A DNA stretch of 40,957 nucleotides from a virus, in IMG/VR virus record IMGVR_UViG_3300032215_000356, positions 1 to 40,957 of that record; one strand, given 5' to 3'. Positions within the stretch are counted from its first letter, which is position 1; every line of letters starts with the position of its first letter. Shown here in pieces: positions 14,563-38,124 of the stretch. Under the pieces are notes generated by a model. The model ran no database searches. It was not told the DNA's origin and was given only the letters and a program-made list of their open reading frames with translations. Both the position numbers and the translations under genes were made by a program.

Positions 14563-17500
14563 ATGACACCACAGCAGCAACAACTCGACGACAACGGATT
14601 CCCCGAGTTTGAACCGGTCCGCATCTACGATGCACCGGCCACAATTCTGACACAAATTTACGATGGGGAAGGCGACCTAGGTCGTGCAATCCGCACCATC
14701 ATGTCGCAGGAATCCCTGAGCCCTGCTGAGCGTGACTCCTATGCCCAGCGTTTGAAGAAGGCACATGGCGGCAACCCCGTCATGGACACCACCATTGACC
14801 TGGCAATGAACCCACTGGTGTGGTTGTTGTTCCTCACCAGCCCCATTGGCCGTGGCCAGTTCATCAAGACGGGCGGCAAACTCATTCAGGGTCTGGGTGA
14901 AATGGACAAGAGCAGTTTTGCTGGGAAGGCATTCGGCAAGGTGGCCGAGCTCTTCCGCCTTACCCCTCTTGCCTCCCTTGTAGGCATGCAGGAGACCACT
15001 GCACCCAGCGAGATCGTGCAGTCCGTTACGTCCCGCCTGCTCAAGCTCAAGCAGAAGCAGGCGGACACAGTAGGCTCAGCTCGCGGCAAGCTGATTGAGG
15101 CCATTAATGCAAAGCATGGAGTCACTGACTTTGACCCCACCCGCCCATCTAATCCCGAGACCCGCGCTTTCCTTGAAGAGCTAAACCTTCTTTCTCATAT
15201 GTGGGCCTCGGGCAGCCTCGAGGGGGGCACCACAAACTTCCCCAAGGTTGGCTTCACTCGGGTCGCCAAGATGAAAGTGGGGGGACGCGAGATTGCCCGC
15301 CCGCTTACGGAAGCTGAGTACCAGCAGATCAAAAGTCAGCCAGCAATCGGGGCCAAGATCACTGACGCTGCGGGCGTTGAGCACGAACTGCTGAGCGCCC
15401 CTATCACCATTGATGACCGGGACACGTTGCGCGAAGCACACAACTTGATCCGCAGCGTGCACGGACCCAAGGCTGAGTTGCCCAAGTACCGCACCATTGA
15501 AGACGATGTGCAAAACATCTTCAACGTGGAAGGCTTGGACAAAGAGTTTGCAATCAAGTGGGCCCGCAGGAATGGCATTGAGGACGAGTTTGTCAGCTAC
15601 ATGAACGCTGGAGATGAGTACCGGCGTGAGATGAAGAAGTACTTGTTTGGCAAGCTGGGCCCCAACAACGAACTGCCAGCCACTTTTGAGCTTGACCCTG
15701 AAAAGATCTCCCGCATCTGGATGCGGTGGCAACGTGGGAACAAGGAAAACCCCACGCTTGAAGAATGGACTCTTGACTCGCTTGTGGGTATGGAAACCAT
15801 TGACAGCATTCTTCCTGGGTGGGCTAAGGAAGCAATGCGTCGTGGTACTCCGGGTGTCAAACTGGATGATGCTTATGAGTTGATTCGTAAGACGCTGACT
15901 CCACAGATGGAAGCCGCGTACATGCCACGCAACACGTTCAACCTCTACGGCAAAGAAAATGGCGAGCTTATGCAAATTGGTCCTACTGACACGGATGCCA
16001 TGATCCGTGGACGTGGGGCAAGGGATGTGTTGAAGATTCCAGGTGTGGCTCTTCCCCGTAGCGGCAACAAGATGCCAATCGACCCTCGAGACTTGAAAAC
16101 AATTGAGCGTCTTATTGGCAACCGGGAGGCCAAGGTTGTTGTCCCTGGGTATGAGGATGCACCCTTGGTCCAGGTGATGGCTCGCACAAACAACGAGTTG
16201 CAGAATGTGTCTACCGGTCGTGTGGCAACACACACGTTCAATCACGAACTGTCGATGCGTAACTACGTGGGCGACATGCACTCGGCCATTGGCCTGCATG
16301 CCCTTGAAATCACGCCTGCACTCCGTGAAACCGTGCTTGGTGCGGTGCGACGTCCCCCCGCTCAGCAGCTTGCAGGTAGTCGTCTCGGTGCACTTGGGGA
16401 GCTGAGTGCCACGACCAAGCGCCGATTCCAGCAGATGGGCGTTGATCCCGAAAAGCTGACGGGCAGTGCGTACACCGCCCCTGAAACTCTGGAGACGCAC
16501 CCGCTTGCCCCGGAGTTGCGAAGTGATCTGCGGCAGGTACATCTCAAGCTCAAGCGCCTTGAGGCCCAGACCAACCCCACTGCAAAGCAAGTGTCTGCGA
16601 TCGAGCGGTTGAAGCAGGACCGCACACGCATCCAGAATGACTTGAAGATCATTGGCCGCACAAGCCTGCGTCCCGACGTTGCCCTTCTTGGGGAAGCCAC
16701 GCCCACTCGTTTGAGTATGGCGGATGCAATTGACGTGGTTATGAATCGCGAGTCTCCTGCTACCCGCGAGTACTTTGAGAAGGGCATCCTCCCCTCAATG
16801 TTCGGTGGCACCAAGCCCACCCAGATGTTTGGGTTGCAGATGAGTCAGCAGGCCCGCAACCTGGCACTTTCCACCGCCAACTCGGCCCCGATGAAGTGGG
16901 TCGAGAACAACGGTGGCTACTTGGGCAAGGCCATGGTCAAGCAGATGCGCGACTACGGCAACATGTCGGCATACGAACTGGACGCTGCCCATGCTGCCGG
17001 TGGCCTGACGGGTTACCTCTACGCCACTCACTTGGGTTTCAACGTGGCGTCTGCCGCGTGGAACATGCTGCAGCCCTTCCAGTGGGCAGCCACGTGGATG
17101 GGTTCGCCTGAGATCATCAAGGCATACGGCACCGCCCTCAAGCAGATGGGTGGTTACCTGGCGGAGCGTGCCAAGCACCCACTGCGTATTGACCCCCAGA
17201 CACAGATGGAGTTGTGGCAGAAGCACATCCGTCTTGCGGGCAAGGAGTCGTACGGCCGTGACCTCATCGGCATTACGCCCGGTGTGATGTCCACTTTTGA
17301 GTCTGCTGTGTACTCAAAGCCGCCGGAGGGCAGGCCCGGTCTTCTGAAGTTTTTAGCGATTGATGCCCCCCTGAAGTTGTTCCAGACCGCTGAAGCCCTC
17401 AACCGCATTGTGGTCGCCGAGGCTGGGTACAGCTGGTACAACAAGATGCAAAAGAGTGCGGGGATGAACTTGCCAACGAGCCGCGTCCTGGATCACATCC

Positions 17501-25336: not shown

Positions 25337-27337
25337 CTAGCTGAAGTCGTACTCCAAGGGAACAGTGTTGCCGTAGTGAGACTGGAGCTTGGCCCAGTAC
25401 CCGGTGTCACGGACCTCCTCAATGTGGGACTTGATCTTGGACTTGAGGGTGTCAAGGTCCACTGAGGGGTGGACGTCGAGGTAGACCGCGTCATAGATCT
25501 GAAGGAACATCTTGACGTGGGGGGACAGGAGGGGGGCGATGGCCCGCTGGATAGCGAGGAGGGTGTTGCCGGCCTGGGTCTGAATGGGGAAGTTTACGAT
25601 CTCGTTGAGGTGCTCGGCGCTTCCCCCCACGAAGGTACGGGACTGGCCGGTGAAGGGGAGGGCGAGGTGGCCGTAAGTGTCGACGCGTCGGAGGAGGTAC
25701 TGCTGCCAGGCATGGAGGCCGGGTCGGGCGTCGGGTCGGGTCTCGGCTACCTGCTCGAAGAAGGACAGGGGCATGAGCTGCCCGGTCATCTCGTGCACTG
25801 ACATCCGCATGCGGAAGGGAGAGGCGAGGAACAAGTCGGCGAAGTTCATGGTCTTGCCCACTTGACGCTCCAACTTCTTGAAGGTAGGTCGGGTGATAGA
25901 GTCCGCGCCGAACAACTGGACGGCTCGGTCTGTGTGCAGGTCGAGCCCATCGTTGAAGGCGGCAAGAAGGGACTCGTCGCCAGAGCACAGGGCAGCTACG
26001 CGAAGCTCGATCTGCGAGAGGTCGAGAGACAGGATCGTGCCACCATGGAAGCGGGACTTGATGCAGGCTTTGATCTCAGGCGGGAAGGTCTGGGCCGAGG
26101 GACTCTTGCAGGTGATGCGGCCCTGGATGGTGCCACCCTCGGAACCCGAGTTGTCCTTGGAGGCGGATGGCACGGGATACCAGACTGGGAAGGCGAGCCC
26201 GTCAGCCTCGCCGGGGTATGGGAGCGGAAGAACGGTGGACGACTTGTCCTCGGGCTTGTTGCGCTTGCCCTCGAGCAGGGGCCAGATGTAAGTGGAGAGC
26301 ATCTTCTGTGCGCGCTGATGAGCGGCTGCAGCTGTGAGTACGGCGATCTCCTTCTTGTCGGTGTCGAGGAGGAAGCCACGGATCAGGTTGCGGTTGGCGT
26401 CAGAGAATGAGAACGCGCGTGTCTTCTCCGTGAACTGGGCCAGGGGATGGGAGAGGACGTCTATGTTGCGAAGCGATAGCTTCTGAACGCACTCGTCTAG
26501 GAAAGCGGTCTTGCTCTTGGCAGAACCGGTGCCCTCCAGTTGGATACCGTGGTACTCAGCGGACTTCATGGCTAGGTCGGATGCGATGAGCATGGTCTCA
26601 CGCATGTCGGTCAGGTCCTCGCGGGACATGGGGATGCCGGCCTCGGACATGGTGATGATGGTCCACAGACAGTCGGAGTAATGCTGGATGCAGTAGGGGG
26701 AGAGCTTGTCCGTGTCGGGCCAGTCGATCAGGATGCGACGGGCCAACTCGGCTGAGGCAAGCAGGGTGTTGTGCGTGTCCTGCGCTGCGTAGTCAAGGAA
26801 CTGCGGATCGTGGGGGGACCTGAACTTTCCGTCCTTGATGGTACGCTTGTACGCATGGGTACCGAGGACAGGACCGAGAGACTTGAGGGATCGCTCTGGC
26901 CTGAGTTCCGAGTGCAGATAGTTAAGGATCGAGAGGTCATACAAAGTTTTGCTGTGTGGGGGCAGAGCGAACTGAAAGCGGTGATCGCATGTGCGAAGGA
27001 ACTGCAGATCAAAGGGCAGGTTCATGCCGAGGATCGTGTCGGCCCAGGTAAGCCAACGATGCAGGAGTACGCGATCCTTTTCTACATCCATGTGTAGGGT
27101 GAAGGTGCAGCATGGCTTGGCCTTGTCCATAGTGACATGAGCAAGGTAAGTCTTGGCGCACGGACACGAGTGGACCTCGGTGGTGATGGTGCAAGTGAGG
27201 ACCATGTTGTCCTTCGAGACGCCGTCGGTTTGCATGGCGCGCTGAGGATGGAACACGGACTGCGAGGGGAGGAATTGACCCTTGGCGTTGGCGACGCATG
27301 AGCCGTACGTCTCGATGTCAAGGGAGATCAGTTTCAT
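25337..27337 (-). CDS. polA: DNA polymerase I (family A) with 3-5 exonuclease
   Basis: 666 aa. Exo motifs: D7/E9 in SLDIET, N106-x3-D110 in GMNLPFDLQF, and Y183-x3-D187 in YAAQDTH, so proofreading is likely intact. Polymerase motif A is LSLDLSQIELR (D439); motif B is ERQVGKTMNFADLF (R491, K495, F499, F503); motif C is LQIYDAVYLD (D616). F499 aligns with E. coli Phe762. Motif C carries Tyr-Asp-Ala in place of the usual His-Asp-Glu, and the motif B Tyr-Gly is Phe-Leu: both are odd. No 5-3 exonuclease domain. ATGA junction with the upstream small gene. Replicative polymerase of the phage. Confidence 0.95.
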   Translation of the reverse strand: MKLISLDIETYGSCVANAKGQFLPSQSVFHPQRAMQTDGVSKDNMVLTCTITTEVHSCPCAKTYLAHVTMDKAKPCCTFTLHMDVEKDRVLLHRWLTWADTILGMNLPFDLQFLRTCDHRFQFALPPHSKTLYDLSILNYLHSELRPERSLKSLGPVLGTHAYKRTIKDGKFRSPHDPQFLDYAAQDTHNTLLASAELARRILIDWPDTDKLSPYCIQHYSDCLWTIITMSEAGIPMSREDLTDMRETMLIASDLAMKSAEYHGIQLEGTGSAKSKTAFLDECVQKLSLRNIDVLSHPLAQFTEKTRAFSFSDANRNLIRGFLLDTDKKEIAVLTAAAAHQRAQKMLSTYIWPLLEGKRNKPEDKSSTVLPLPYPGEADGLAFPVWYPVPSASKDNSGSEGGTIQGRITCKSPSAQTFPPEIKACIKSRFHGGTILSLDLSQIELRVAALCSGDESLLAAFNDGLDLHTDRAVQLFGADSITRPTFKKLERQVGKTMNFADLFLASPFRMRMSVHEMTGQLMPLSFFEQVAETRPDARPGLHAWQQYLLRRVDTYGHLALPFTGQSRTFVGGSAEHLNEIVNFPIQTQAGNTLLAIQRAIAPLLSPHVKMFLQIYDAVYLDVHPSVDLDTLKSKIKSHIEEVRDTGYWAKLQSHYGNTVPLEYDFS

Positions 27338-27945: not shown

Positions 27946-28084
27946 GGATCTTCTCTAGCTCAAACAGTTTTCGCATGGCATGACGCAGCTTCATGATCTC
28001 CATGAGTGCTGACTTGCACGCTGGACATGACGAAGACTGTAACGTTTGAACCAACGTGTCAGTAGTTGGCGTTTGCTGGGTCAT
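27887..28084 (-). CDS. 65-aa protein with CxxC
   Basis: 65 aa with SSSCPACKSALMEIMKLRHA, a CxxC followed by a helix, then a His/Pro/Thr-rich tail. The single CxxC could bind zinc if dimeric. It starts inside the 3-prime end of the uracil-DNA glycosylase gene (26-nt overlap) and its last 59 nt overlap the next gene, the longest overlap in the operon, so the tail deserves checking. Function unknown. Confidence 0.5.
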   Translation of the reverse strand: MTQQTPTTDTLVQTLQSSSCPACKSALMEIMKLRHAMRKLFELEKIHAQPDTRVPATHPSQHPTR

Positions 28085-28748
28085 TGGGTGAGAAGGGGGT
28101 GACGATGCGGGGGCTGGATGCTACAGGCATCTGGCCGATGATGGCTGAGTGCACGAGGGTCATGTGGTCTGCTACTGGGTGGAGGAGGTTGCGTGAACGG
28201 AGCACGGCAGCAGGGTGGAACGTGGTGAAGAGTTGCCAGTCTCCCCATAGTCCGGTCGGTGTACCTTGTCGGTTGAATGCAGAGGTTAGCGACCAGGGCT
28301 TGGGCTGTGTGAACTTGGTGACAGTGGAGATGGCGTGGGCACCGACGCAGAGCAGGATCTTGGGAACGTGGGGGGCAATGAGTTGGCCAACGGCATTAAG
28401 ATCCTGAGCAGAGAAGGCAGGGAAACAAGTGCGGAAGTGACGGGGCTTGGGTGGTGCAGCGGCTGGCGTGTAGCAGCGTGCTGCGTTGAGGAGGATGACT
28501 GAGGCGTGAGGCAGGATGGATGGGAGATAGATCTCCTTGAGCATCTTGCCTGATGGCCCAACGAATGGCTCGTTGAAGCGGTCCTCTTGGAAGCCTGGGT
28601 TCATGCCGAGCACTGCGACCATGGGTGTGAGGGGTGAAGGTAGCAACGACTCAGAAAGAAAAACCCCGGGGACTCCAGGGTTCTTCGCGTGCTTGTGTAG
28701 TTCGCAGGCAGTGCAGGATGGGGCGGGGAGTAACAGTGGTAGGTTCAT
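28059..28748 (-). CDS. Uracil-DNA glycosylase, Fe-S family 4-like
   Basis: 229 aa from the ATG at 28748, which overlaps the upstream TGA (ATGA); longer in-frame sequence upstream is the shadow of that gene. Four cysteines (C12, C15, C92, C108) are placed as the 4Fe-4S ligands of family 4 enzymes. Motif 1 is GMNPGFQED (48-56) with PFVGPSG after it, and motif 3 is HPAAVLR (178-184). The family removes uracil from DNA. Usual family motif 1 is GExPG; here Met-Asn replaces Glu-x, so the water-activating position may differ. In phages this gene probably limits uracil in replicating DNA. Confidence 0.85.
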   Translation of the reverse strand: MNLPLLLPAPSCTACELHKHAKNPGVPGVFLSESLLPSPLTPMVAVLGMNPGFQEDRFNEPFVGPSGKMLKEIYLPSILPHASVILLNAARCYTPAAAPPKPRHFRTCFPAFSAQDLNAVGQLIAPHVPKILLCVGAHAISTVTKFTQPKPWSLTSAFNRQGTPTGLWGDWQLFTTFHPAAVLRSRNLLHPVADHMTLVHSAIIGQMPVASSPRIVTPFSPNDPANANY

Positions 28749-29026
28749 GCGGGCTCTTTCTGTGGGGGGATGCACCAATCCCAGATGGCTTCGTATTGAT
28801 CTGGGATGATGAGCTTTCGGCAAAGTTCGTGCTGATCGCGGTCGATCATGAAGGCGTAGGGGAAGAGCTTGTCACCGTCGGGGTGAGACTCGATGATGCA
28901 AAGGGTTGGGTAGCGGGCTCCTGTGTCCTCATGGCGCAGATCCACAAGTGTGATGGCGGGTATGGGTCGCTGCTTGAAAGCGTGCCACAGAGTACGCAGG
29001 TTAGTTCCGTTGGCTTCAGATGGCAT
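28745..29026 (-). CDS. 93-aa hypothetical protein
   Basis: Start MPSEANGTNL at 29026; the upstream in-frame sequence is antisense to the VWA gene. Contains a beta-alpha pattern (AITLVDLRHEDTGARYPTLC, then LFPYAFMIDRDQHELC) and three cysteines. Ends ATGA with the glycosylase gene and begins 13 nt after the VWA gene. It is in the right place to be an accessory of the AAA+/VWA pair. No family recognised. Confidence 0.6.
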   Translation of the reverse strand: MPSEANGTNLRTLWHAFKQRPIPAITLVDLRHEDTGARYPTLCIIESHPDGDKLFPYAFMIDRDQHELCRKLIIPDQYEAIWDWCIPPQKEPA

Positions 29027-29039
29027 AGTGCGGATCCTT

Positions 29040-31151
29040 CTACTGGTTGGCAAGACACTGACCAATTCCTGTGATGAGCTGGCATGCAACGGGCACGGCA
29101 TCCAGCGGGGACTCAACCTTGAACCACTTGTCGTGATTGTACTGCTGACGGAGAGTCTGTGCATCAATGCCGAAGCCGAATCCGACGGTGAACACGGGAA
29201 TGGGAATGTTGTCAACGATATGACGGACACTGGAGATGCCATCGTCGAAGGACTCCTGGTTGTGGTAAGGGTCTTCGACGCCACCGCAAGGTGCACCGTC
29301 AGTGAGATGGATGATGATCTTGGTTGCGTCGGGGTGATGAGCAAAGAGGTAATCGGACGCAGACTTGATCGCGGTTGCGGATGGAGTGCCACCGATGGGG
29401 TACGAGTAGAGCAGGGCTGAGTCAGTGTCGAGGCGACGCATGTTGCACACGGAGAGACTGCTGTCCGCAGATGGATCGGACTTGGTGTGCACGAAGTAGT
29501 CGCTGTCATCGGCAACGTGACCGCCGAAGTAGGCGAAGGAGGACAGCGAGACGTTGGATGCACGGGCCAGTCCGTCCTTAAGACCGGCAAGGAATGCAAG
29601 CGCTTCCTGCATCACGTTGTGACTGGCCTCGTACTTGTGGGTATCGGGGTCGATCTCATTGGGGTAGACGTTGAGGGACATGGACGAGGATGAGTCAAGC
29701 ACGACGGCGATGGCGATCTGTCCATGGCCTGCTTCGGGGGGGACGGAGAAGATACGCGGATCGTTGAAGGCTGCAAGGTTGAGCAGACTGCCCTCGTCGA
29801 GCACACCTTGGAGTTGGGCGTGGTCAGTGGGTGGTGGGGCAGGGACGTGCCACGCGGCAGCACTGATGGCCTCTGCGATGGGAGCACGGACCTTGTCTTG
29901 CAGGCGCTTGGACCTGACTGCGTACTCACGCAACTTGGGATTGCGTGCAAGGACGGGGGCCATCTGCTCCTCGGACATCATGTCGTAGAAGATGGATGGT
30001 GGGGGGATGCCCACACAGGGCGAGTCGGTGGGATTAGCGTCGGCCTCTTCCGTGGACGGCTCGATGAGGGAGTCACCGCTTGCGTGCTGCCTGCGGTGGA
30101 AGGACTCGTCCTTGTCAGGAGTACCGTCCATACCGAGTCCGCTGCTGCCACGACGAGGAGTGGTACTGCGCTTGGGCTTCTCCTCGTGGGGGGACAGGAC
30201 GCGGGTCAGGTAATCGACGAGTTCGCTGATGGCAAGGATGTGTTCTTCGTTGGTGCGACACTTGGAAAGGATGTTAGGCCATGCTTGGACGGCGAGATCG
30301 TAGGCAGACTTGAACTGCTTTGGGAACGGGATGCGCTGGTCGGGTGCAGCGTTGAGGTTCCATGCAAGGGCCATGCAGAAGCGACGGAGTTCCGAACGGT
30401 ACTTGCTCTTGGTCTTGACGGCCGAGGCAACCTCCTCCGTGGGGGGAAGGAGCACGGAGTCTTGGGCTTCGAAGATGGAGTGCCAGCCCGGCCATTGGGT
30501 AAGGATCTTGGTGCGGATGTCACGGACACAGGCTGCGTACCAGACGTCAAGCACGCAGTCAGCATGGACAGAAAGAATATCGCAGCAACCACTTGGCATA
30601 GGTGGAAGGTTGGTGTTCTTGAGCAGGTCGGCCACGAACATGAGACCGTGGTAACCGATGTTGAGGCATGCGTTGTCACGCTCCATGGACTCGAGGCCGT
30701 AGCCGGTGATGGCATCGGCCAGGGTGTAGATGTCGGGGACGTGGTCAAGCATGCGGTCAGAGATGAGACTGCCCGGGATATAGATGCCGGGTCCCTGCTC
30801 GTGTGGGTTATAGGGTGTGTTGGGGTTGTCCCAAATGTCACCGTGTCGATAGGCATTGATGAAGTTGTTGACGATGTCAATCTTCTCGTTGGCATTGGGC
30901 TGTCGCCTCCAGTCGGCCACGTAACGGTCCATGTGGCTGGCGAAGGCGTCGATGGCGGATGTGATGGAGAGACGCTCGATGGTCTCAAGGTGTACGTAGT
31001 TGACACGGACAGGGCGGCAGGCCCAGAGAGACCACACCTTGTTGGTGATCTCACTGGTGCGGGTGAGGAGGTTGCGCTTGGCAACCCCCTCGTCGGTGTC
31101 GAACCAACCGCTGGTGTCGATGTCGAAGTTGTCAAGGATGCGTTGAAACAT
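29040..31151 (-). CDS. CobT-like VWA-domain protein
   Basis: 703 aa. Residues 1-330 are helical with two cysteine/aromatic-rich patches. Residues 335-400 are a charged, low-complexity linker. Residues 478-700 are a VWA domain with a complete MIDAS: D486-x-S488-x-S490 (VVLDSSSSMS), T589 (IGGTPSAT) and D618 (LTDGAP). This helical-linker-VWA order is that of CobT, partner of CobS in cobaltochelatase, and of VWA partners of MoxR ATPases. The AAA+ partner is directly upstream with a one-base TAATG-type junction. Metal chelation, protein remodelling or anti-host activity are all possible; phage CobT-like proteins are little studied. Confidence 0.85.
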   Translation of the reverse strand: MFQRILDNFDIDTSGWFDTDEGVAKRNLLTRTSEITNKVWSLWACRPVRVNYVHLETIERLSITSAIDAFASHMDRYVADWRRQPNANEKIDIVNNFINAYRHGDIWDNPNTPYNPHEQGPGIYIPGSLISDRMLDHVPDIYTLADAITGYGLESMERDNACLNIGYHGLMFVADLLKNTNLPPMPSGCCDILSVHADCVLDVWYAACVRDIRTKILTQWPGWHSIFEAQDSVLLPPTEEVASAVKTKSKYRSELRRFCMALAWNLNAAPDQRIPFPKQFKSAYDLAVQAWPNILSKCRTNEEHILAISELVDYLTRVLSPHEEKPKRSTTPRRGSSGLGMDGTPDKDESFHRRQHASGDSLIEPSTEEADANPTDSPCVGIPPPSIFYDMMSEEQMAPVLARNPKLREYAVRSKRLQDKVRAPIAEAISAAAWHVPAPPPTDHAQLQGVLDEGSLLNLAAFNDPRIFSVPPEAGHGQIAIAVVLDSSSSMSLNVYPNEIDPDTHKYEASHNVMQEALAFLAGLKDGLARASNVSLSSFAYFGGHVADDSDYFVHTKSDPSADSSLSVCNMRRLDTDSALLYSYPIGGTPSATAIKSASDYLFAHHPDATKIIIHLTDGAPCGGVEDPYHNQESFDDGISSVRHIVDNIPIPVFTVGFGFGIDAQTLRQQYNHDKWFKVESPLDAVPVACQLITGIGQCLANQ

Positions 31152-32170
31152 TAGAAGGGCTCCGTGTTGGTGGTGGTGACGGTGTCAGACACGAGGCCGG
31201 GGAACTTGCCGGCGAGGAGAGTGGCCATCGCTGCGCGCTTTGAGTGGTCCTCGATCTTGGACAGGATGGTATAGCGCAGGGACTGCTGGCCGTACTTGGC
31301 GATGTCAGATGCGGCGGCGAGCAGTTCGCGGGTGGAGATGGGCTCGTGCGTGGAGTTCTTGCCACGAGTGTTGGAGGCGATGTGAGCGAGGGCAATGCAC
31401 GAGTCGATGTCAAGAGTGGTACGACGCTGGAGCAGCATGGCCTCCTTGGGGGTGGGCAGATAGGTGACTTCGACGACACGAGAGAAGCGATCACGGAGGG
31501 CCAGGTCAACGGGCGAGGCACCGAGATACTTGGCACCCATGTTGGTGGTGGCGACGAACGTGGTGTTGGGTCCGACGCGTACGGCAGCGCCGCGTTCCTC
31601 GATCCACGAGGCACGACGGTGGTCGAGCAGAGGCATGAGACCGTTGAGCACGGAGGCAGGTGCGCGGTTGAGTTCGTCGAGGACGATGACGCAGTTGCCG
31701 GAGGTCACGGCGCGCACGAACTCCGTGTCCTGCCAACGGATGCTGCCGTTGTGCACGGTGCGGAAGCCGAACCAGTCGCGTGGCTCACGGATCACGGAGC
31801 AGTCCATGATGAGCAAGCGCTTGTTGGTTTCCTGGGCGAGCCACTGACCGATGGAGGTCTTGCCGCAACCAGCGGGACCGATGAGTCGCAGGTTCTCGAT
31901 GCCGGCAGAGGTGCCGATGGACATGAGGAACGACTTGAGGTTGTCGTCGAGCTCGAGGTCGATGCGCTCAGTGGGGGTGGCAGGCGTGGTCCCGGTGACG
32001 GAGATGCCGTCGGGGCTGGTGGCGAAGAGGCCGTCATCGAAGGCGGGCTTGTGGGTCTCGGGCTCGATAGTGGGGGGCATGGTGTCCTTCCGTGTGGTGA
32101 TGGGGGTTGCGGCCTTGACGGCGTTGATGCGAGCGAGGATTGCGGCGCGTGCGGTGGGCGAGATGTTCAC
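31151..32170 (-). CDS. CobS/MoxR-type AAA+ ATPase
   Basis: 339 aa. Walker A LIGPAGCGKTS (K104), Walker B VIVLDELNRAP (D165, E166), sensor-1 Asn in VATTNMGAKYLG (N209), and DLALRDRFSR providing the arginine-finger region. ELNRAP after Walker B is characteristic of the MoxR/CobS clade. The N-terminal 75 residues are a Pro/Thr-rich low-complexity extension. The gene is followed immediately by the VWA gene, so the two likely form an ATPase ring plus VWA adaptor as in cobalt or magnesium chelatase. Some cyanophages carry CobS alone; a complete pair is less common. Substrate unknown. Confidence 0.9.
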   Translation of the reverse strand: MNISPTARAAILARINAVKAATPITTRKDTMPPTIEPETHKPAFDDGLFATSPDGISVTGTTPATPTERIDLELDDNLKSFLMSIGTSAGIENLRLIGPAGCGKTSIGQWLAQETNKRLLIMDCSVIREPRDWFGFRTVHNGSIRWQDTEFVRAVTSGNCVIVLDELNRAPASVLNGLMPLLDHRRASWIEERGAAVRVGPNTTFVATTNMGAKYLGASPVDLALRDRFSRVVEVTYLPTPKEAMLLQRRTTLDIDSCIALAHIASNTRGKNSTHEPISTRELLAAASDIAKYGQQSLRYTILSKIEDHSKRAAMATLLAGKFPGLVSDTVTTTNTEPF

Positions 32171-35436: not shown

Positions 35437-35724
35437 TTAGATCAACTCCTCTGTGGCCGCTGCCGGGGCGACCGGGGTATCCACGCGCACGGGCGAGGAA
35501 GAGGGGGAGACGCCGATGGAGGCGGCGAAACGCTTGAGGGACTGGCCAGCGACCTCGATGTAGGAGAGGAGCGAGCCGCCCTTCTGCTCGAAAGCCACAG
35601 CCTTGGCGGGAAGCCACAGATTGGTGCCCGGCACCTGCACTTCGATGACGGCCTTGAGGCCCCACTGCTCAGTCGAGGTGACAACGACGCGGGCCGGAAC
35701 GATGATGCTCTTGTTATCAGACAT
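35437..35724 (-). CDS. 95-aa hypothetical early protein
   Basis: 95 aa with AAGGAG upstream. The first 65 residues look like a compact beta protein (SIIVPARVVVTSTEQWGLKA then VIEVQVPGTNLW), the last 25 a Pro/Ser/Ala tail. It is the first gene after the 426-bp non-coding region, so the earliest expressed gene of this part of the leftward operon. No family recognised; a host-takeover role is only a positional guess. Confidence 0.6.
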   Translation of the reverse strand: MSDNKSIIVPARVVVTSTEQWGLKAVIEVQVPGTNLWLPAKAVAFEQKGGSLLSYIEVAGQSLKRFAASIGVSPSSSPVRVDTPVAPAAATEELI

Positions 35725-36150
35725 GGTAGTGACTCCTTGTGCAAGGAAGATGTGGAAGCAGGGTTACATCAAAGAGATGTAGGACACCCTGCCCCCTCCA
35801 TAGGGGGGCAGGGGGGCCAGGACCAAGAACCAGAAAGCAGTTCACTGTCCGTGCGCCCCACTGGGCGCTAGCGCCGAGGGCGAAGCCCGGCGCTACCGGG
35901 CGATACCCCCCTTGGCCCCTAGGCGGGACGGCGCTATGGAAAGGAAAGGGGACACCCGTCCCAAAATTTCCCTCCACATTCCGACCACACTGACCACACC
36001 GACCATGTCTCCAAAAAACCGTACACCCTATAGCCCAATCGCTCACTAGTTTTCCTATTTATATGGTCTCTCTGGTCAGAAGAGTATAAGTAAGGGAAAT
36101 ACAAGCACTTAGCCCGACCACCTGTGTGGTCATAACTTGGTCGGACGTGG
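35725..36150. other. 426-bp non-coding region: structured leader plus iteron array
   Basis: No credible gene. For leftward transcription the part nearest the 95-aa gene is a structured leader: TACATC/GATGTA (35765-35781); CCCTGCCCCC (35787-35796) / GGGGGCAGGG (35804-35813); and a stem in which TAGCGCC (35869-35875) pairs with GGCGCTA (35889-35895) around GGGC-GAA-GCCC, overlapping the palindrome GGCGCTAGCGCC (35864-35875). The distal part (about 35960-36150) is AT-richer with the repeats described separately. The leftward strand carries TATACT, TATAAAT and CTATAGGG, but no spaced -35/-10 pair convinced me. Likely a combined promoter, leader and replication region. Confidence 0.55.
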
Positions 36151-36152
36151 TC
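35983..36152. repeat. Iteron-like array of GACCA/TGGTC elements
   Basis: Nine copies of GACCA or its complement: GACCA at 35983, 35992 and 36001 (exact 9-bp steps, two reading GACCACAC); TGGTC at 36064 and 36073 (again 9 bp); a perfect inverted repeat GACCAC-CTGT-GTGGTC at 36116-36131; and TGGTC at 36138 and 36148, the last overlapping the methyltransferase stop. AT-rich sequence (TTTCCTATTTATATGG) lies between the groups. Such phased direct repeats next to a helicase gene are typical of replication origins; a multimeric operator is the alternative. Confidence 0.6.
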
Positions 36153-36723
36153 ATGTCCACTGCTGGGCCATAGCTTGGGCAACACCGTCGTAGGTCTTGC
36201 TTCGAAGTTTGCTGCGCTCAGGGCTTGGTGGCATCCTATGGATCCGAGCTCTCACCTTTGGGTCTGCACTCAACCCCACCACATTGGTAGGTACCAACAA
36301 AGGCAACCCCTTTAACCACAAACACGTTGCTTTGCTCTCAGGATGCCCAAACTGCCAAGGCTGAATAACTTGGTTAGGCTTTCGCCACTTTGTGCTCATA
36401 ATCCCAATTGGGTTCTCAATGGCAACCTTTGGACAGTCAAGGTTTGCAAACAACATGAAGAACTCAATGCTCTTCTGTTGTCGCCCATCAGCCTGTTTCT
36501 CCTTAAACCACCTTGCCCCACTCACTGCAAGGTCCGTGCAAGGAGGAAAGGCTAGCACCATATCCCAACTCTGATTCAAAACAGGAACTACATCCCCTTG
36601 AATGTGCCACTCTGGGTGTTCCCCACTACATGGCTCTAGGTCACAAGACCAAGCCTCCGCCCCAAGAGCTCTAAATGCCTTGGTGACGGCTTGACTTTCC
36701 TCACACGCTACTAGAACTCTCAC
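36151..36723 (-). CDS. Compact cytosine-C5 methyltransferase-like protein
   Basis: 190 aa. Motif I-like CEESQAVTKAF near the start, motif IV FPPCT with candidate nucleophile Cys62, motif VI IENP (E103-N104-P105), and a C-terminal TYDGVAQAMAQQW resembling motif X of Dcm enzymes. The target-recognition region is very short compared with normal C5 methyltransferases (over 300 aa), so specificity may be loose or need a partner. Phages often carry such mini-enzymes, probably to modify their DNA against restriction. It abuts the helicase gene with no gap. No cognate restriction gene is present. Confidence 0.7.
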   Translation of the reverse strand: MRVLVACEESQAVTKAFRALGAEAWSCDLEPCSGEHPEWHIQGDVVPVLNQSWDMVLAFPPCTDLAVSGARWFKEKQADGRQQKSIEFFMLFANLDCPKVAIENPIGIMSTKWRKPNQVIQPWQFGHPESKATCLWLKGLPLLVPTNVVGLSADPKVRARIHRMPPSPERSKLRSKTYDGVAQAMAQQWT

Positions 36724-38124
36724 TTAAAACTCCCCCTTCAAGACCAGTCCCTTGACGCCCCTAATGCGCTCATCCCCTAATCGACCCCTAACAAGCTTCC
36801 ATGTACTCTCCTCAACCATCCTATGAACGAGCTGAGCCTGCGACACCTCCTCCCTGTACCCCACTCGAGCCTTCCATTGCTTCCAGATCCCCCACAGATT
36901 GGTCGTACTGACGAATCCCCCTTCGCTTTCCACGAAATGGGACTCCAAGAAGTCCTGCACGGGGTTGTTCAGGGACTGGAAACGCCCCACAACTTCCTCT
37001 GCCGCCGCTGGAACTGGCCACAACTGACCCGAATCGGTCTCCTCAAGCAGTTCCTTAGCCCCCTGCAGCGCCCACGCCGCAATACCCGCAGTCTCACCCG
37101 CCAACTTTGACGCCAACTGCAGGTCCTCCCGGCCCAAAAAGCTATTGGTAAACGGCAGAACCAGCATCTTGCTGGCCAAACCCTGCCCCTTGTTGGGCAA
37201 CTTGGGGATCTCATTGCTCTGCACCACCAAGAAACCCGGTATCACCACATCCCGGATGGGCTCCATGTACTTCCTATCAATGCTTACGGGGTCCCCACCC
37301 ACGATGTTTTTCAGTGACGCGACCGCCAATTCACTTTCCCTAGAGTTCAACGCCCCAAATTCACTTACGCTCAGCACCCTTGCCGCCTCCGCACCCCACA
37401 ACCCGAACTGACTAGCCAACTGAGCCATGCTCAGGCCCCTGAAACCATCGCCCATCAGGTTCTTCACGACCCGCATGATCGTTCCCTTGCCGCCACGGAC
37501 CCGTCCCTGCATCAGAAGCCACCGCTGCCACCGTCTCCCGGGCATCAACATCGCGCCCATCGCCCTCTGCAGCAAACTCTTCCACTTCTCATCCCCGCCA
37601 CTCCACTGTTCCAAGCACGCCATCCACGTTGGACACACCGCCGTTGGGTCCCACGCGCACCCCACAACCACAGGCTCAAAGAACAGCTCGTCCCTCACCA
37701 CCGTCTTGCCCGTCAGCACATCCACAACCACATCTTCAAACGCCACGCACCGCTCGAGCTCTGGCGTATCAACCACATTGCCCAGCCACGCCGGCGCATA
37801 GCTCTGCTTCAACCGGATCAACGCCCTCAACGCCTGCTGCACGTTCATCACGGTCTGACTCGTCGGCCCCAATCGCCGCGTATTGATGCCCGTAGGCGTC
37901 GGCGTCTGGATATGCGCATCCTCCATTGCCAACCACAGCGCCTCTTCCAGCCATCGCTCATCCCTGCGCACCCACTTGCCCGCGTACCACTCCCACGGCT
38001 CTCCCCGCCACTCCCAAATACCCATGCGCCCTTGCGGTGTTGTCCACCTTGCCCTCAGAATAGCCCTAGCAATTGCCATGGGCTCTGCACTGTTCAGCGG
38101 GTTCCGTTGCGTCAAGACTTTCAT
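36724..38124 (-). CDS. D5-family (SF3-type) helicase/primase-like protein
   Basis: 466 aa with a perfect AGGAGG upstream. The ATPase core has Walker A QGRVRGGKGT (206-215), an acidic Walker B region SVSEF (251-255) and sensor region VVQSNEIPKLPNKGQGLASK (300-318), which are diagnostic of the D5/poxvirus-type helicases of phages. Residues 1-150 contain the D5_N-like part, Trp-rich (MGIWEWRGEPWEWY); no archaeo-eukaryotic primase catalytic triad is visible, so priming may be done elsewhere. Likely the replicative helicase. The gene lies next to the iteron array, and its strand carries few of the G6 motifs seen elsewhere. Confidence 0.85.
   Translation of the reverse strand: MKVLTQRNPLNSAEPMAIARAILRARWTTPQGRMGIWEWRGEPWEWYAGKWVRRDERWLEEALWLAMEDAHIQTPTPTGINTRRLGPTSQTVMNVQQALRALIRLKQSYAPAWLGNVVDTPELERCVAFEDVVVDVLTGKTVVRDELFFEPVVVGCAWDPTAVCPTWMACLEQWSGGDEKWKSLLQRAMGAMLMPGRRWQRWLLMQGRVRGGKGTIMRVVKNLMGDGFRGLSMAQLASQFGLWGAEAARVLSVSEFGALNSRESELAVASLKNIVGGDPVSIDRKYMEPIRDVVIPGFLVVQSNEIPKLPNKGQGLASKMLVLPFTNSFLGREDLQLASKLAGETAGIAAWALQGAKELLEETDSGQLWPVPAAAEEVVGRFQSLNNPVQDFLESHFVESEGGFVSTTNLWGIWKQWKARVGYREEVSQAQLVHRMVEESTWKLVRGRLGDERIRGVKGLVLKGEF

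What the first reader, a model, noticed from the sequence alone, without database searches (positions are those of the whole stretch)
35983..36152. Candidate replication origin: nine GACCA/TGGTC iterons with 9-bp phasing
Three direct copies at exact 9-bp steps, two inverted copies again 9 bp apart, a perfect GACCAC-4-GTGGTC palindrome and two more copies lie within 170 bp of AT-richer non-coding DNA next to the helicase and methyltransferase genes. This density and phasing is not seen elsewhere in the window. TGGTC is also a known recognition pentamer of the T7 primase, although no T7-type primase is visible here.
Basis: partly seen in the sequence, partly recalled or inferred. Interest (0 to 1): 0.65.

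Follow-up and report, generated by a model that had tools for sequence, protein, structure and literature searches.

The report
Phage replication origin beside its helicase
The cluster of short GACCA repeats is very probably the docking site where this phage's own helicase starts copying the genome: it is kept beside the helicase gene in all 17 close relatives found, and in more distant relatives the repeat's first letter and one amino acid of the helicase have changed together.

Summary
Nine GACCA/TGGTC boxes lie in 35983-36152: two opposed sets flank a 58-bp AT-richer spacer, plus an outer group, in non-coding DNA. In 17 of 17 relatives of the neighbouring D5-type helicase (63-99% identity) the same array (7-9 boxes) follows the helicase gene, while spacers and downstream genes change. 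In a sister clade (43-47%) it sits in the same place with the same geometry, but some members use GACCA and others TACCA. On a helicase tree built without the C-terminal domain the letter changes at least three times, and wing residue Arg453 changes with it each time (Arg with GACCA, Gly with TACCA). The model's best PDB match is the SaPI5 primase-helicase; SaPI/PICI origins lie directly 3' of rep as two iteron sets flanking an AT-rich region. Best explanation: an initiator-helicase iteron origin of SaPI/PICI type in a ~50-kb tailed phage. The GC-skew flip at 36 kb is real but confined to the window's clade and has the sign opposite to bacterial origins, so it is weak support. Binding and replication were not testable. 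New member of a known kind; its main interest is a natural helicase-iteron specificity series.

The parts
35983..36152 (.). Whole iteron array (nine GACCA/TGGTC boxes), proposed replication origin
   Evidence: conserved in 17/17 close relatives
35983..36005 (+). Inner set A: three GACCA boxes at 9-bp steps (35983, 35992, 36001)
   Evidence: two or three of these boxes kept in relatives
36006..36063 (.). 58-bp AT-richer spacer between the two inner sets (60% AT vs 42%), candidate melting region
   Evidence: spacer 55-75 bp and AT-richer than its locus in own and sister clades
36064..36077 (-). Inner set B: two inverted boxes 9 bp apart (36064, 36073)
   Evidence: invariant in the alignment
36116..36152 (.). 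Outer group: one + box (36116) and three - boxes (36127, 36138, 36148) at 10-11 bp steps
35944..35969 (-). Conserved element just 3' of the array (AAATTTTGGGACGGGTGTCCCCTTTC on the helicase-sense strand); related sequence in the sister clade; function unknown
36724..38124 (-). D5/P4-type SF3 helicase (466 aa, no primase domain) with C-terminal winged helix; proposed initiator; Arg453 at the wing tip
36151..36723 (-). DNA methyltransferase (phrog_757) lying between helicase and array; absent there in most relatives
35437..35724 (-). 95-aa protein of unknown function downstream of the array; not kept there in most relatives

Best explanation
The array is the replication origin of a ~50-kb tailed phage, and the D5-type SF3 helicase encoded just upstream is its initiator. 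Inferred mechanism: the C-terminal winged helix of each helicase subunit reads one GACCA pentamer; boxes phased at 9-11 bp seat subunits along the DNA; the two oppositely oriented inner sets load two hexamers head to head on either side of the AT-richer 58-bp spacer, which melts; each hexamer then unwinds outward and the phage family-A DNA polymerase follows. The outer group would act as extra or regulatory binding sites. Shown here: anatomy, conservation, linkage to the helicase, co-change of iteron letter and wing residue, fold. Inferred: binding, melting, loading and replication.
For: (1) 17/17 loci with a 63-99% identical helicase carry the array (7-9 boxes) right after the helicase gene; boxes are invariant or nearly so while spacers vary. 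(2) The array stays with the helicase while the downstream gene changes: the 95-aa gene is there in only 3 of 14 own-clade loci tested. (3) The sister clade (43-47%) has the same geometry in the same place but GACCA or TACCA boxes. (4) On a tree from the helicase core without its C-terminus the letter changes at least three times and Arg453 changes with it in 3/3 independent pairs; a single origin of the sister GACCA rows is rejected (p-AU 0.007). The L283 clade lacks this Arg, and its recognisable arrays read TACC (5), GATCC (3) or AACC (1). (5) Arg453 lies at the wing tip of the modelled C-terminal winged helix. (6) Best PDB match of the model is the SaPI5 primase-helicase (TM 0.65), also found by sequence (E 1e-4). 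(7) Independent scan: of 37 non-coding arrays of this pattern in viral contigs, 25 have a primase-helicase gene directly upstream (16 of the window's D5 family, 9 of other D5, VapE or DUF927 families); arrays inside long ORFs of viral contigs have none. (8) Known systems: SaPI/PICI origins lie directly 3' of rep, two iteron sets flanking an AT-rich region (PMC6092414); [quoted passage not shown]
Against: No binding, melting or replication data. GC skew has the sign opposite to a bacterial origin and does not flip in two sister genomes. The Arg453 evidence is three changes, which cannot reach significance alone (sign test p 0.25), and wing plus array could have moved together as one recombined stretch. 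Some relatives have a different or no recognisable array (L311, L312, L318, L319, L321). No primase was identified for this phage. The spacer of L291 is not AT-rich.
Confidence: 0.85

Rival explanations
1. The boxes are operators: a repressor, or the helicase itself, binds them to control transcription of the downstream early operon, and replication starts elsewhere.
For: Array lies between same-strand genes, upstream of an operon; terminator-like hairpins lie within or next to it; in sister loci L275 and L282 a hairpin plus T-run sits inside the array.
Against: The downstream gene is not conserved while the helicase is; no sigma-70-like promoter was found in the array on the relevant strand; the letter co-changes with the helicase wing; the layout of two opposed sets around an AT-richer spacer is that of SaPI/PICI origins (PMC6092414). 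A dual role is not excluded.
Confidence: 0.1
2. The inverted boxes extrude a cruciform or stem-loop that is the origin structure, as proposed for plasmid pRN1 and phage BIP-1.
For: Inner arms could pair (17 nt, 82% complementary, 56-nt loop); pRN1's origin 3' of its primase-helicase gene is described as a 21-nt stem with 58-nt loop (PMC4234260).
Against: Across 20 loci, positions between and beside the boxes pair at only 33%, near chance, so pairing comes from the repeated box alone; single-strand folding z = -1.7; the outer group and 9-bp phasing are not explained.
Confidence: 0.03
3. The array is a packaging, partition or termination site, or marks where forks meet, as a literal reading of the skew sign would suggest.
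For: Cumulative GC skew has its maximum, not its minimum, at the array, which in bacteria marks a terminus.
Against: The skew flip is confined to one clade; coding-strand C excess is a genome-wide baseline here; the boxes follow the helicase, while the large terminase gene is kilobases away in relative G004 (array at 17.6 kb, terminase at 9.7-11.6 kb of L022).
Confidence: 0.02

Closest known systems
SaPI / PICI replication origins with Rep or Pri-Rep (PMC6092414; PMC7581432)
   Same: Position directly 3' of the initiator-helicase gene; [quoted passage not shown] helicase with C-terminal DNA-binding domain; best fold match is the SaPI5 primase-helicase.
   Different: Host element is a ~48-52 kb tailed phage with its own family-A polymerase and terminase, not a satellite; the helicase has no primase domain; an outer box group is present; a methyltransferase gene intervenes in the window. 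PMC6092414 stated in 2018 that this origin organisation was known in no other bacterial replicon.
SCCmec Cch2 helicase and its AAGTG iterons (PMC7581432)
   Same: D5-type helicase without fused primase, iterons just downstream, binding by the C-terminal domain, 5-nt iteron.
   Different: Only three AAGTG iterons in a 23-bp direct-repeat region there; here nine boxes in two orientations. Cch2 works with the CCPol-MP primase; no such pair was identified here.
pRN1 ORF904 and phage BIP-1 origin (PMC4234260)
   Same: Origin 3' of a primase-SF3 helicase-winged helix protein, about 100 bp long.
   Different: Described as a stem-loop; here pairing outside the boxes is near chance.
Phage P4 alpha with ori and crr; SV40 T antigen with GAGGC pentamers (from general knowledge)
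   Same: SF3 initiator helicase and clusters of short boxes in both orientations.
   Different: Different boxes; P4 alpha has a fused primase; SV40 T antigen binds with an N-terminal domain.

Membership tests
SaPI/PICI-type initiator-helicase origin | Array immediately 3' of the initiator-helicase gene | tested here: met
   First box within about 120 bp of the helicase end in 16 of 17 close relatives; the window and L012 have a methyltransferase gene in between
[quoted passage not shown]
   Opposed inner sets flank a 58-61 bp spacer of 52-60% AT, richer than its locus
SaPI/PICI-type initiator-helicase origin | Initiator of SaPI Rep type (AAA+ helicase with C-terminal DNA-binding domain) | tested here: met
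   DUF5906/Pox_D5; model matches 7ola with TM 0.65 and has a C-terminal winged helix
SaPI/PICI-type initiator-helicase origin | Initiator binds its cognate iterons | tested here: inconclusive
   Only indirect: co-change of box letter and Arg453 in 3/3 independent pairs
SaPI/PICI-type initiator-helicase origin | rep plus ori supports autonomous replication | not testable with these tools
   Needs a plasmid assay
PICI satellite (the element itself) | Small satellite dependent on a helper phage | tested here: not met
   Circular relatives of 48.1-51.6 kb; large terminase in relative G004
T7-type primase sites | T7-type primase encoded | tested here: not met
   No primase recognised among the proteins scanned; the helicase matches only the helicase half of primase families. 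The window is not the complete genome.
DnaA-dependent origin | DnaA boxes near the array | tested here: not met
   No TTWTNCACA within 1 kb; a single one in the window, at 15515
Stem-loop origin (pRN1 type) | Conserved base pairing beyond the repeats | tested here: not met
   33% pairing outside boxes

The most novel reading that the evidence does not exclude
The helicase C-terminal wing and the origin form a linked, swappable specificity cassette: Arg453 reads the first G of GACCA, its replacement by Gly goes with TACCA, and phages of this group repeatedly switched origin specificity, by mutation or by recombining wing plus array, possibly to escape cross-recognition by co-infecting relatives.
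Probability: 0.45. Interest if true: 0.65.

Novelty: new member of a known kind. Interest (0 to 1): 0.52.

Why it matters
To my knowledge the origins of most phages with D5/VapE-type helicases are not mapped. This one can be located from sequence alone, and its relatives offer a natural series in which box letter and one wing residue change together, so how a self-loading helicase recognises its origin becomes directly testable. It also extends the SaPI/PICI origin layout, described in 2018 as unique to those satellites (PMC6092414), to full-size tailed phages.

Tried and rejected
Coding-repeat artefact: many public hits to the box pattern are multiples-of-9 repeats inside long ORFs, but this array is non-coding and its spacings change out of frame. 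Hairpin origin. DnaA boxes. Rfam and tRNA hits: none. GC skew as proof: set aside because the flip is clade-specific and of inverse sign; the AT-skew change follows gene strand. Density statistics alone: insufficient. Near-identical named phages: none by megablast. D5 helicases of ten named phages: no dense GACCA arrays; Streptococcus 315.6 has a GTTACG cluster 3' of its primase-helicase and Alteromonas R9Y1 a TAACGT cluster 5' of it. A literature search for GACCA iterons found nothing relevant. Note: several window minus-strand protein references omit the start Met, so the model numbering is one lower than used in this report.

Full report
Observation. The window is a whole linear IMG/VR viral record. 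All nine boxes are at the stated places. In the helicase's reading direction the layout is > 10 > 11 > 11 < 43 > 9 > 63 < 9 < 9 <, where > is GACCA, < is TGGTC and numbers are start-to-start steps. GACCA is the most clustered of the 512 pentamers in the window. Density alone would not convince: in 60 simulations some pentamer reached nine in 170 bp in 11, although GACCA itself never did. Conservation is what decides.

Neighbours. The adjacent helicase (36724-38124, -) belongs to the D5/P4-type SF3 helicases (phrog_6088, DUF5906, Pox_D5) and lacks a primase half. Further along are a family-A DNA polymerase (25337-27337), a Sak4-like protein and nucleases. Three relatives close as circles of about 48.1, 50.5 and 51.6 kb by 123-127 nt end repeats, and one carries a large terminase, so this is a tailed phage; the window is most of one.

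Conservation in the own clade. A search with the helicase gave 17 loci at 63-99% identity. Every one has the array, 7 to 9 boxes, directly after the helicase, or after an intervening methyltransferase gene in L012 as in the window. Aligned, the boxes are almost invariant while the bases between them drift and indels of one to three bases occur. The downstream gene is not conserved: the 95-aa protein lies there in three of the fourteen own-clade loci tested. So the array belongs with the helicase.

Sister clades and letter switching. A profile search reached helicases of 24-47% identity. At 43-47% the array is at the same place with the same geometry, but L271-L274 and L289 use GACCA and L275-L282 use TACCA. 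More distant members keep opposed sets with other or the same letters (GGTCC in L302, CCTACG in L304, GACCA in L291 and L293). On a tree from helicase residues 1-400 the letter changes at least three times; forcing the sister GACCA rows into one clade is rejected (p-AU 0.007). Two columns separate GACCA from TACCA users in both clades: 453 (Arg against Gly) and 445 (Ser/Thr/Val/Gly against Lys/Arg/Gln). In the L283 clade, whose wing is GGKRG without this Arg, twelve added loci gave TACC arrays in five, GATCC in three, AACC in one, and no clear array in three (L311, L318, L321). Three independent pairs all go the same way, but three cannot be significant, and because wing codons and array are neighbours a single recombination could carry both.

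Structure. The model (pLDDT 88.5, pTM 0.81) has an N-terminal domain, an AAA+ core and a C-terminal winged helix: helices 406-420 and 428-438, strands 444-448 and 453-461 (model numbering is one lower than used here). Arg453 is at the tip of the wing. The best PDB match is the SaPI5 primase-helicase, followed by poxvirus D5/E5; sequence search gives the same first hit.

Independent scan. The inner-set pattern found 80 viral and at least 119 cellular stretches. Many are coding repeats. Of the 37 non-coding viral hits, 25 have a D5, VapE or DUF927 primase-helicase in the fetched stretch, always with the array at or beyond its 3' end; several of the other 12 are truncated pieces of loci already counted; arrays inside long ORFs of viral contigs had none. 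Because the scan asked for GACCA, it shows the link between such arrays and these helicases, not how common GACCA is.

Skew. GC skew flips at the array in the window's clade, also at fourfold sites: about +0.5 in the helicase gene and -0.3 to -0.6 in same-strand genes downstream, against a genome-wide coding-strand C excess of about 0.2. The sign is opposite to a bacterial origin, and two sister genomes with the same array show no flip. This is unexplained and is not used as main support.

Known systems. SaPI and PICI origins lie immediately 3' of rep and have two iteron sets flanking an AT-rich region; rep plus ori of EcCICFT073 supports plasmid maintenance (PMC6092414). [quoted passage not shown] pRN1 and phage BIP-1 were given a stem-loop origin 3' of their primase-helicase (PMC4234260); here pairing outside boxes is near chance.

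Conclusion. The anatomy, the linkage to the helicase, the co-change of letter and wing residue, and the fold all fit an initiator-helicase iteron origin of SaPI/PICI type. Shown: sequence anatomy, conservation, co-variation, predicted fold. Inferred: specific binding, melting of the spacer, loading of two hexamers, bidirectional replication. No experiment was available.

Noticed in passing
L085, L091, L101, L108, L157: VapE-type primase-helicase genes of other phages or prophages have a GACCA array whose matched core starts exactly 68 bp after the gene, suggesting the same origin type in another helicase family.
   Followed up: partly
window 35944-35969 and the matching place in L271-L282: A conserved element (AATTTTG..ACGGG...CTTTC) follows the array in both own and sister clades; function unknown.
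   Followed up: no
window 36151-36723; L012: Methyltransferase genes only 48% identical sit between helicase and array in two genomes, suggesting separate insertions at the same spot.
   Followed up: partly
window 20-38 kb and relatives G003-G017: Strong GC-skew flip at the array in one clade only, with sign opposite to bacterial origins and on top of a coding-strand C excess; unexplained.
   Followed up: partly
L275 and L282, between the outer and inner boxes: A GC-rich hairpin followed by a T run, like a terminator of the helicase transcript, lies inside the origin array.
   Followed up: no
window 29040-32170: An AAA_5 ATPase (best PHROG annotated as porphyrin biosynthesis, CobS-like) is followed by a 703-aa protein that looks VWA/CobT-like by eye; no Pfam hit for the latter.
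   Followed up: no
window 28059-28823: Uracil-DNA glycosylase superfamily protein (Pfam UDG, E 6e-16).
   Followed up: no
window 20-38 kb: No primase was recognised although the helicase lacks a primase half; the phage may use an unrecognised primase, perhaps a polymerase-based one as in SCCmec, or one encoded outside the window.
   Followed up: no
L302: Distant helicase locus with a nearly complete dyad: boxes of GGTCC at steps 10, 11, 12, 33, 9, then 75 bp, then close to the mirror image.
   Followed up: no
L249 (Streptococcus phage 315.6), L245 (Alteromonas phage R9Y1): Other short-repeat clusters next to D5 primase-helicases: GTTACG 3' of the gene in 315.6, TAACGT 5' of it in R9Y1.
   Followed up: no
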